Positions 24,117 to 25,502 of a stretch of 64,000 nt of DNA are shown here, piece after piece (position 1 is the first letter of the stretch; every line of letters begins with the position of its first letter). This DNA comes from Streptomyces hundungensis. GTDB lineage: Bacteria; Actinomycetota; Actinomycetes; Streptomycetales; Streptomycetaceae. Below the pieces are notes generated by a model. That model was not told where the DNA came from. It was given only the letters and a program-made list of their open reading frames with translations, and did no database searches. The translations under genes and the position numbers were made by a program. The DNA is taken from contig NZ_CP032698.1 of NCBI RefSeq assembly GCF_003627815.1, forward strand, positions 6,944,001 through 7,008,000, in the 5' to 3' direction.

Positions 24117-24139
24117 TTGTCAGTGGCGTGCCCTAGGCT
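24117..24139 (+). promoter_or_regulatory. RecA-NDp/PafBC-type promoter of rarA, leaderless
   Basis: TTGTCAGTG, 8 nt, TAGGCT matches the actinobacterial DNA-damage promoter at all fixed positions. The rarA GTG begins exactly 7 nt after the hexamer, where transcription would start, so the message is predicted leaderless. The priA locus has the same 7-nt geometry. Confidence 0.7.
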
Positions 24140-24146
24140 CGACGAC

Positions 24147-25502
24147 GTGGAACCCGACCTGTTTACCGCAGCCGCAGAGGACCGCCAGGAGAAAGACCCG
24201 GCGGGCAGCCCTCTGGCCGTACGGATGCGCCCGCGCGTCCTCGACGAGGTGGTCGGCCAGCAGCACCTCCTGAAGCAGGGCTCGCCCCTGCGGCGCCTGG
24301 TGGGGGAGGGGGCCGGCGGGCCGGCCGGCCCGTCCTCGGTGATCCTGTGGGGCCCGCCGGGCACGGGCAAGACGACGCTCGCCTATGTGGTGTCCAAGGC
24401 CACCAACAAGCGGTTCGTCGAGCTCTCGGCGATCACCGCGGGCGTCAAGGAGGTCCGCGCGGTCATCGACGGAGCGCGCCGCGCCATCGGCGGCTTCGGC
24501 AAGGAGACCGTCCTCTTCCTGGACGAGATCCACCGCTTCTCCAAGGCCCAGCAGGACTCGCTGCTTCCCGCCGTCGAGAACCGCTGGGTCACCCTGATCG
24601 CGGCGACCACCGAGAACCCGTACTTCTCGGTGATCTCCCCCCTGCTCTCGCGCTCCCTCCTGCTCACCCTCGAACCGCTCACCGACGACGACCTGCGGGC
24701 CCTGGTCCGGCGGGCGCTCACCGAGGAGCGGGGTCTCGGATCCGCCGTCACCCTGCCCGAGGACGCCGAGGCGCATCTGCTGCGCATCGCGGGCGGCGAC
24801 GCGCGGCGCGCCCTGACCGCCCTGGAGGCGGCGGCCGGTTCGGCGCTCGCCAAGTCCGAGCAGGAGATCACGCTCCAGACCCTGGAGGAGACCGTCGACC
24901 GGGCGGCGGTGACGTACGACAAGGGTGGCGACCAGCACTACGACGTGGCGAGCGCGCTGATCAAGTCGATCCGCGGCTCGGACGTGGACGCGGCCCTGCA
25001 CTATCTGGCCCGCATGATCGAAGCGGGCGAGGACCCGCGTTTCATCGCCCGGCGCCTGATCATCTCCGCGAGCGAGGACATCGGCCTGGCCGACCCGACG
25101 GCGCTGCCCACGGCGGTCGCGGCCGCGCAGGCCGTCGCCCTCATCGGATTCCCGGAAGCGGCGCTGACGCTGAGCCACGCCACGATCGCGCTGGCGCTGG
25201 CCCCGAAGTCCAACTCGGCGACGACCGCGATCGGCGCCGCGATGGCGGACGTCCGGGCGGGCCTGGCCGGCCCGGTCCCGCCCCATCTGCGCGACGGCCA
25301 CTACAAGGGCGCGGCCAAGCTGGGCCACGCGCAGGGCTATGTCTACCCGCACGACGTGCCGGGCGCGATCGCCTCCCAGCAGTACGCGCCGGACGCCGTG
25401 GCGGACAAGCGCTACTACGAGCCGACCCGGTACGGCGCGGAGGCCCGGTACGCGGACGTGGTGGAGAAGGTGCGCGAGCGCCTGAGCCGGGAGGGGGACT
25501 GA
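24147..25502 (+). CDS. rarA: Replication-associated recombination protein A (RarA/MgsA) ATPase
   Basis: RarA is an AAA+ ATPase that acts at stalled replication forks. The 451-aa protein has Walker A 'GPPGTGKTTLAY' near residue 62, Walker B 'LFLDEIHRFSKAQQD', sensor 1 'AATTENPYFSV', an arginine finger region 'LLSRSLLLTL' and the C-terminal tetramerisation domain ('AGLAGPVPPHLRDGHYKGA'). I chose GTG 24147 over an upstream start because it lies at the predicted transcription start (leaderless), giving 'MEPDLFTAAAEDRQ'. Confidence 0.94.
   Translation: MEPDLFTAAAEDRQEKDPAGSPLAVRMRPRVLDEVVGQQHLLKQGSPLRRLVGEGAGGPAGPSSVILWGPPGTGKTTLAYVVSKATNKRFVELSAITAGVKEVRAVIDGARRAIGGFGKETVLFLDEIHRFSKAQQDSLLPAVENRWVTLIAATTENPYFSVISPLLSRSLLLTLEPLTDDDLRALVRRALTEERGLGSAVTLPEDAEAHLLRIAGGDARRALTALEAAAGSALAKSEQEITLQTLEETVDRAAVTYDKGGDQHYDVASALIKSIRGSDVDAALHYLARMIEAGEDPRFIARRLIISASEDIGLADPTALPTAVAAAQAVALIGFPEAALTLSHATIALALAPKSNSATTAIGAAMADVRAGLAGPVPPHLRDGHYKGAAKLGHAQGYVYPHDVPGAIASQQYAPDAVADKRYYEPTRYGAEARYADVVEKVRERLSREGD

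What the first reader, a model, noticed from the sequence alone, without database searches (positions are those of the whole stretch)
24117..24149. rarA and priA share a damage promoter with identical leaderless geometry
At rarA the array is TTGTCAGTG-N8-TAGGCT-N7-GTG; at priA (58821-58853) it is TTGTCAGTA-N8-TAGGAA-N7-GTG. In both the start codon sits at the predicted +1. Two unrelated loci with the same fixed promoter-to-start spacing suggest a leaderless, damage-inducible fork-restart set whose translation would not need a leader or Shine-Dalgarno site.
Basis: partly seen in the sequence, partly recalled or inferred. Interest (0 to 1): 0.7.

Follow-up and report, generated by a model that had tools for sequence, protein, structure and literature searches.

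The report
Leaderless damage promoters at rarA, priA
Two DNA-repair genes in what looks like a Streptomyces genome carry the same known DNA-damage switch, placed so close to the gene that the messenger RNA probably begins right at its first codon, and many other genes with this switch share that layout.

Summary
The motif is the known RecA-NDp (PafBC-type) promoter; PafB/PafC-like genes are present, and a 2008 study already lists priA with it in S. coelicolor. Two things go beyond the finding. (1) rarA and priA are not a private fork-restart pair: of 128 motif sites from five genomes, 55 have a coding start 6-8 nt after the -10, against 2-19 in twelve other 3-nt bins and 2 of 22 housekeeping-type control sites. 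(2) The layout is older than Streptomyces: rarA 77 of 80 loci; priA 30 of 30 same-genus loci and 19 of 26 others. Outside, the PafBC core GTC is at the exact place in 18 of 40 (rarA) and 12 of 19 (priA) of those, so leaderlessness and damage control are separable. priA's -10 lacks the usual final T. No 5' end was measured; PafBC action here and any benefit of leaderlessness are inference. Verdict: real, probably functional; a known promoter type in a leaderless layout that my searches did not find described.

The parts
24117..24125 (+). PafBC-type -26 box (RecA-NDp element) TTGTCAGTG of rarA
   Evidence: TGTC core in 31 of 32 rarA loci whose record title says Streptomyces
24134..24139 (+). -10 hexamer TAGGCT of rarA
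   Evidence: TANNNT 6-8 nt before an in-frame start in 77 of 80 loci
24147..25502 (+). rarA coding sequence, GTG start at the predicted +1
   Evidence: ORF; RarA-type AAA ATPase (best models below their curated cut-offs); start position and N-terminus conserved in relatives
24083..24114 (+). strong hairpin directly upstream of the rarA box; might limit read-through from the upstream gene, no T-run
58821..58829 (+). PafBC-type -26 box TTGTCAGTA of priA
   Evidence: TGTC core in 30 of 30 same-genus loci read
58838..58843 (+). -10-like TAGGAA of priA, preceded by TGG (extended -10 type, my reading), no T at position 6
58851..60998 (+). priA coding sequence, GTG start at the predicted +1
58753..58790 (+). 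strong hairpin between the upstream gene and the priA box, no T-run
3367..3389 (+). third RecA-NDp-type promoter of the window, before ruvC (leadered comparison: start GTG 3441, Shine-Dalgarno-like GGGGAGG)

Best explanation
rarA and priA are each transcribed from their own RecA-NDp promoter. When single-stranded DNA accumulates, PafBC joins the housekeeping RNA polymerase, binds the TTGTCAGT element at about -26 in place of a -35, and the DNA opens at the -10 eight bases further on. Because the start codon follows the -10 by 6-8 bases, transcription starts at or within 1-2 bases of the GTG and gives a leaderless mRNA that the ribosome reads from its 5' end. Shown here: the elements, their spacing, conservation, the presence of PafB/PafC-like genes, and a regulon-wide excess of this spacing. 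From the literature (mycobacteria): the PafBC/sigma mechanism. Inferred: PafBC action in this organism, the exact +1, damage induction of these two genes, and leaderless translation. The two traits are separable: at rarA the leaderless core is more widespread than the box.
For: 30 box sites against 0 in the reversed control; in 25 same-genus genomes 580 TTGTCAGT-N9-TANNNT sites against 4 reversed (summed). PafB/PafC-like WYL proteins a few kb from the Pup-proteasome genes. At rarA, TANNNT lies 6-8 nt before an in-frame start in 77 of 80 loci against 0-8 of 80 at ten other spacing triplets; GTC lies at the exact PafBC position in 36 of 37 Streptomycetaceae-like loci and 18 of 40 other loci, with at most 5 of 40 at any other position in the latter. 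At priA, GTG is 6-7 nt after the element in 30 of 30 same-genus loci; outside, 19 of 26 loci have TA at 6-8 nt (0-4 at eight other triplets), and 12 of those 19 have GTC at the PafBC position. Regulon: 55 of 128 sites and 29 of 68 gene clusters have a coding start at 6-8 nt; twelve other 3-nt bins hold 2-19 sites and 1-9 clusters. Own genome 16 of 30 against 2 of 22 TTGAC-type control sites (Fisher p 0.001) and against 21% leaderless primary TSSs in S. coelicolor (PMC4895711, passages). No sigma-70-type promoter match in about 300 bp around either site, though shuffles also give about none, so that is weak.
Against: No 5' end, induction or binding data were obtained. priA's -10 lacks the final T, in the genus (A) and outside (C in 14 of 19), so its +1 is less certain. 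14 of 30 own sites do not have the geometry, and a mapped mycobacterial RecA-NDp gene (Rv1955) has a leader of about 50 nt (PMC2897130, passages). A published initial motif search in S. venezuelae suggested that the mycobacterial PafBC motif is not conserved there (PMC9380542, passages). For recA the GTG at this spacing may not be the real start; without its five sites the count is 50 of 128. The TTGAC control is small and partly chance matches.
Confidence: 0.74

Rival explanations
1. The GTG codons are reached from a longer mRNA with a leader. The TAGG sequence is read as a weak Shine-Dalgarno site (most plausible at priA, where AGGA lies 8 nt before GTG), and the real +1 is further upstream.
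For: priA's TAGGAA is a poor -10 (no T at position 6) and contains AGGA at a usable distance.
Against: In the 19 non-Streptomyces priA loci with TA at 6-8 nt, the hexamer is TAGAAC, TAGACC, TACAAC or similar in most, which are poor Shine-Dalgarno sites, at the same spacing; 4 of the 19 do read TAGGAC. The box is fixed 8 nt upstream of TA. Strong hairpins lie directly upstream of both boxes.
Confidence: 0.15
2. The sites are damage promoters, but the activator in Streptomyces is not PafBC; another regulator or an alternative sigma factor reads the same element.
For: The S. venezuelae LexA study says an initial motif search suggested the mycobacterial motif is not conserved there, and leaves a RecA/LexA-independent response in Streptomyces to be shown (passages). 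SIGffRid treated the motif as a possible sigma-factor site (passages).
Against: The element matches the RecA-NDp motif in letters and spacing as quoted by SIGffRid from Ahel et al.; PafB/PafC-like genes are present. The S. coelicolor SCO6735 gene with this promoter type is reported as UV-inducible (section heading and passages), which speaks for damage control, not for PafBC as such.
Confidence: 0.12
3. The shared spacing is coincidence or a side effect of compact intergenic regions and has no meaning beyond each gene having a promoter.
For: Two loci alone could agree by chance; the window-level enrichment is modest.
Against: Offset 6-8 peak in 128 sites, cluster-level excess, and conservation of the spacing in 77 of 80 rarA loci with near-empty neighbouring spacings.
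Confidence: 0.03

Closest known systems
RecA-NDp / PafBC-dependent promoters (S. rimosus recA promoter TTGTCAGTGGC-N6-TAGggT as quoted; mycobacterial PafBC regulon)
   Same: Same element, same spacing to the -10, DNA-repair genes, PafB/PafC-like genes present.
   Different: The literature passages seen describe motif and regulator; none of those passages describes a leaderless subclass. priA's -10 is atypical.
SIGffRid S. coelicolor list of TGTCAGT-type promoters (PMC2375139)
   Same: Already names priA, radA, uvrB and others as genes with the motif (passages).
   Different: The word leaderless does not occur in that paper's main text; rarA was not seen in the passages shown, and its gene table is a supplement that could not be read.
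Leaderless mRNAs of Streptomyces (21% of primary TSSs in S. coelicolor, PMC4895711)
   Same: Start codon at +1, preceded by a -10 (passages).
   Different: One S. coelicolor study named membrane and TetR-type regulator genes, another found no group with linked function; the words DNA repair and recA do not occur in either main text.
Leaderless lexA of M. tuberculosis (PMC2897130)
   Same: A damage-response gene whose translation start coincides with its transcription start, shown by experiment (passages).
   Different: In the passages seen it is not described as a RecA-NDp gene; the RecA-NDp gene of the same paper, Rv1955, has a leader.
Deinococcus radiation response in a lineage with many leaderless mRNAs
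   Same: A LexA-independent damage response; a cited 2014 title stresses leaderless mRNAs in D. deserti (passages; that paper itself was not held).
   Different: Repressor-based (DdrO/IrrE, abstract start). The two leaderless transcripts named in the passages seen were not radiation-induced, so it is only a loose parallel.

Membership tests
RecA-NDp / PafBC-dependent promoter | -26 element TTGTC[AG]GTG | tested here: met
   rarA 9 of 9, priA 8 of 9 letters; TGTC core conserved
RecA-NDp / PafBC-dependent promoter | 8-nt spacer to a TANNNT -10 | tested here: inconclusive
   rarA met. priA has the 8-nt spacer and TA, but position 6 is A, not T
RecA-NDp / PafBC-dependent promoter | PafB and PafC encoded in the genome | tested here: met
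   A WYL+WCX protein and an HTH_PafC+WYL+WCX protein side by side, a few kb from Pup, Pup-ligase-family and proteasome genes; the first is called PafB-like from its position
RecA-NDp / PafBC-dependent promoter | No housekeeping -35 hexamer at the usual distance | tested here: met
   0 sigma-70-type sites in either 301-bp region; shuffles also give about 0, so the test is weak
RecA-NDp / PafBC-dependent promoter | Damage induction independent of LexA/RecA, PafBC bound in vivo | not testable with these tools
   No expression or binding data. A simple GAAC/GTTC SOS-box pattern found none near rarA, priA or ruvC
Leaderless gene | Start codon 6-9 nt after the -10, at the predicted +1 | tested here: met
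   7 nt at both genes; conserved
Leaderless gene | No Shine-Dalgarno site | tested here: inconclusive
   rarA: only AGG within the -10. priA: AGGA within the -10-like element
Leaderless gene | Mapped 5' end at the start codon | not testable with these tools

The most novel reading that the evidence does not exclude
The PafBC regulon of Streptomyces is built largely of promoters fused to their start codons, and this is selected. A leaderless GTG/ATG without a Shine-Dalgarno site is translated only when the RNA begins exactly there, so read-through RNA from upstream genes gives little repair protein and output is tied to activated PafBC. rarA and priA are deep examples in which the leaderless core is the older trait and the damage element was kept or added in part of the phylum.
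Probability: 0.27. Interest if true: 0.72.

Novelty: new member of a known kind. Interest (0 to 1): 0.45.

Why it matters
A published study leaves open whether Streptomyces has a RecA/LexA-independent, PafBC-type damage response at all (PMC9380542). Here the element is frequent, specific and attached to repair genes: every one of 25 same-genus genomes searched has it, and PafB/PafC-like genes are present in the window's genome. If about half of such a regulon is leaderless, damage-induced translation in these bacteria depends on a different mode of ribosome entry than most genes use. That is directly testable; at least the S. venezuelae start-site map was made without damage. It would also correct start codons and candidate gene lists, because several uncharacterised genes share the layout.

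Tried and rejected
Chance explanation for two loci: rejected by genome-wide and cross-genome counts. 'Fork-restart set': rejected as the defining group, because the geometry spans many repair functions. Leaderlessness as a product of the PafBC box: rejected for rarA, since the layout persists where GTC is absent (22 of 40 non-Streptomycetaceae loci). Housekeeping control promoters: only 11 TTGACA sites and 16 TTGAC/TAGNNT sites were found (22 distinct together), so that control is small; the second pattern is close to chance (16 matches against 12 reversed). LexA box near the genes: none by simple pattern. RNA structure at the 5' end of both coding sequences: nothing unusual (z -0.17 and -0.59). 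Intrinsic terminators: strong hairpins but no T-run. Phylum-wide strict pattern: too strict outside the genus (8 of 60 genomes with a match, two of them own or same genus). The literature search for the motif letters returned 1,471 papers, of which 20 were listed; among those I judged only SIGffRid relevant.

Limits of the counts: the own genome was taken with the looser pattern (30 sites; 27 with the T at position 6), the other four genomes with the T required (98 sites). Those four were taken from the 25 because their sites were listed in full; the listing was cut off, and G026, also listed in full, was left out but for two stretches. The 30 loci (L154-L183) and the two of G026 (L282-L283) were fetched but not counted. 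6 of 128 sites gave no coding ORF and are in no cluster. Coding starts were called from ORF length and third-position GC in any frame, not from annotation, so some may be wrong. priA in the genus was read in the 30 best of 57 genomes with a match (61 searched); outside in the 26 non-genus loci among the 30 held, of which at least one (L297) has hardly any upstream sequence. The rarA set is the best 80 of 579 confirmed relatives, itself a capped list, biased to close ones; its 'Streptomycetaceae-like' group of 37 includes L049, L059 and L061 by similarity or position in the list. The box was the best-scoring position in a window, so its presence is partly selected; its fixed place is not. The non-genus priA test accepts any TA at 6-8 nt and several possible starts per locus.

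Full report
WHAT IS THERE. Both arrays are exactly as described. rarA: TTGTCAGTG (24117-24125), 8 nt, TAGGCT (24134-24139), 7 nt, GTG 24147. priA: TTGTCAGTA (58821-58829), 8 nt, TAGGAA (58838-58843), 7 nt, GTG 58851. Both GTG codons open ORFs of the expected proteins. The priA model match passes its curated cut-off; the best rarA models do not reach theirs, although they match at E-values down to 1.8e-136. The window holds a third site, one mismatch away from the pattern, before ruvC at 3367. 'Same genus' below means the genomes that the tool placed in its genus.

MORE THAN CHANCE. In the window alone the case is modest. In the whole 8.39-Mb genome TTGTCAGT-N9-TA occurs 30 times and its reversed form 0 times. 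All 25 same-genus genomes searched have TTGTCAGT-N9-TANNNT sites, 5 to 42 each, 580 together against 4 reversed (summed). Downstream of the own-genome sites lie RecA, RadA-like, DnaX-like, RecD2-like, UvrB-like, AlkZ-like, O6-methylguanine-methyltransferase, uracil-glycosylase-family, DnaB-like and ribosomal S6 genes, and others of unknown or unrelated role, such as a transporter component, an MFS protein and a sigma factor (Pfam domains; names such as RadA, UvrB and DnaX are my reading of those domains).

WHAT IT IS. The element is the RecA-NDp promoter, quoted by SIGffRid from Ahel et al. as the UV-inducible S. rimosus recA promoter TTGTCAGTGGC-N6-TAGggT (PMC2375139, passages). That paper already names priA, radA and uvrB among S. 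coelicolor genes with the motif. In mycobacteria the regulator is PafBC, which works by sigma adaptation at a -26 motif and is triggered by single-stranded DNA (PMC6789036, PMC8223512, PMC11804915; passages). This genome has a WYL protein and an HTH_PafC+WYL protein side by side, a few kb from Pup, Pup-ligase-family and proteasome genes. A study of S. [quoted passage not shown] smegmatis PafBC motif is not conserved there and leaves the question open (PMC9380542, passages); the present counts argue that the motif is there in this genus.

THE GEOMETRY. I counted ATG/GTG codons that open an ORF of 60 or more codons at each distance after the -10 in 128 sites from five genomes (own 30; G013 14; G018 20; G009 27; G022 37). 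Distances 6, 7 and 8 hold 13, 37 and 9; the mean over distances 0-150 other than 5-8 is 3.0. With a third-position GC filter, 55 of 128 sites, 16 of 30 own sites, 29 of 68 gene clusters and 13 of 26 multi-genome clusters have a start at 6-8; twelve other 3-nt bins hold 2-19 sites, 0-3 own sites and 1-9 clusters. There is a second, lower rise at 36-44 nt (14, 14 and 19 sites), which I read as leadered genes. By genome the 6-8 layout is at 16 of 30, 4 of 14, 7 of 20, 11 of 27 and 17 of 37 sites. In a control of 22 TTGAC-type promoter matches of the same genome, 2 have the layout. A published S. coelicolor map gives 21% leaderless primary TSSs (PMC4895711, passages); 16 of 30 against 21% gives a one-sided binomial p of 1e-4, with the caveat that one figure is mapped and the other predicted. 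Of the 55 starts, 39 are ATG and 16 GTG. In several clusters the layout is shared by every genome present: uvrB-like 5 of 5, a SWIM-domain protein 5 of 5, radA-like and dnaX-like 3 of 3 each; the uracil-glycosylase (5 of 5) and rpsF (4 of 4) sites never have it. Some clusters are mixed. So rarA and priA belong to a broad, predicted-leaderless half of the regulon, not to a private fork-restart pair.

DEEP CONSERVATION AT rarA. Among 80 actinobacterial rarA loci, TANNNT lies 6-8 nt before an in-frame ATG/GTG in 77; the same test at ten other spacing triplets gives 0-8 of 80, and the reversed hexamer 5 of 80. Outside the Streptomycetaceae-like group it is 40 of 43. The PafBC core GTC at its exact place is in 36 of 37 Streptomycetaceae-like loci but in 18 of 40 others, against at most 5 at any other place in the latter. 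In the remaining 22 the layout exists without GTC there. I infer that the start-at-+1 core is the older and more general trait, and that damage control is an overlay kept or gained in part of the phylum; no tree was built.

DEEP CONSERVATION AT priA. In the 30 best same-genus loci, TGTC is in the box and GTG is 6-7 nt after the hexamer in 30 of 30; 27 have TA eight bases after the box, and three read AAGAAT there, one base shorter in all. In 26 loci from other genera of the class, 19 have TA 6-8 nt before a possible start (0-4 at eight other triplets), and 12 of these have GTC at the PafBC place. The hexamer is unusual: TAGGAA or TAAGAA in 22 of 30 same-genus loci, TAGGAC, TAGAAC or TAGACC in 11 of the 19 others, with G at -2 in 18 of 19 and C at position 6 in 14 of 19. 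TGG before TA resembles an extended -10 (recalled concept). A conserved weak -10 would suit a promoter that depends on an activator; that is inference.

SURROUNDINGS. Both boxes sit directly after strong hairpins (24083-24114, 58753-58790; -30.4 and -40.5 kcal/mol, z -4.6 and -6.3). They lack T-runs, but could limit read-through from the upstream genes. The first 60 nt of each predicted mRNA fold no better than shuffles. Together with the missing or weak Shine-Dalgarno site this suggests, but does not show, that protein is made only from RNA that begins at the start codon.

RESULTS AGAINST. 14 of 30 own sites do not have the layout. A mapped mycobacterial RecA-NDp gene, Rv1955, starts translation about 50 nt downstream of its mapped +1 (PMC2897130, passages); the same paper shows a leaderless lexA. 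recA here shows a GTG at 7 nt in five genomes, but a second start, ATG, follows 36 nt later; the 36 nt differ at only one place, synonymous if coding, among the five, yet use codons that look atypical for Streptomyces (my judgement, not computed), so they may be a leader rather than coding. If recA is dropped, own sites are 15 of 30 and all sites 50 of 128. Outside the genus recA boxes are mostly degenerate and the spacing varies.

LITERATURE LIMITS. A search for PafBC with leaderless gave two papers, of which I saw only the listing. The other searches and the passages read did not show a report of leaderless enrichment in this regulon. No paper was read whole. Supplements could not be opened, and Ahel 2002, Gamulin 2004 and Muller 2018 were not seen. 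The claim is therefore only 'not found in these searches'.

VERDICT. The interesting residue is the regulon-wide and widely conserved fusion of damage promoter and start codon, which needs 5'-end mapping under damage.

Noticed in passing
window 3367-3441: ruvC has the same box and a TAGCCT -10 but a leader of roughly 45-50 nt with a Shine-Dalgarno-like GGGGAGG: a leadered sister promoter in the same window.
   Followed up: partly
L002, L195, L205, L241, L276: recA: GTG 7 nt after the -10 and a 36-nt, nearly invariant stretch before the usual ATG (VKRSTQANRVEP if translated). Either an N-terminal extension or a constrained leader.
   Followed up: partly
L049: Locus titled Microtetraspora glauca encodes RarA at 89% identity to this genome's and has the Streptomyces-type promoter; the record may be mislabelled.
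   Followed up: no
L194, L239: A protein whose N-terminus looks like a DNA polymerase III beta clamp (from memory, not tested) lies behind a box in two genomes: possibly a damage-induced second clamp.
   Followed up: no
L012, L190, L201, L267: The box lies upstream of rpsF (ribosomal protein S6; domain tested in L012 only, the others by cluster), without the 6-8 nt layout in all four genomes; the operon may be damage-controlled (ssb was not looked for).
   Followed up: no
L004, L005, L008, L010, L022, L027: Uncharacterised genes (SWIM domain, DUF4253, PrsW-like, DUF2797, a weak HNH match, and one without a Pfam match) with a box and the leaderless layout: candidate new damage-response genes.
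   Followed up: no
L208: A leaderless-layout site before a protein that resembles a macrodomain (from memory); a published S. coelicolor macrodomain gene, SCO6735, has a RecA-NDp promoter.
   Followed up: no
L186, L224, L261: A box about 43-56 nt before a protein that looks like UvrA from its N-terminus (from memory, not tested): a leadered member in three genomes.
   Followed up: no
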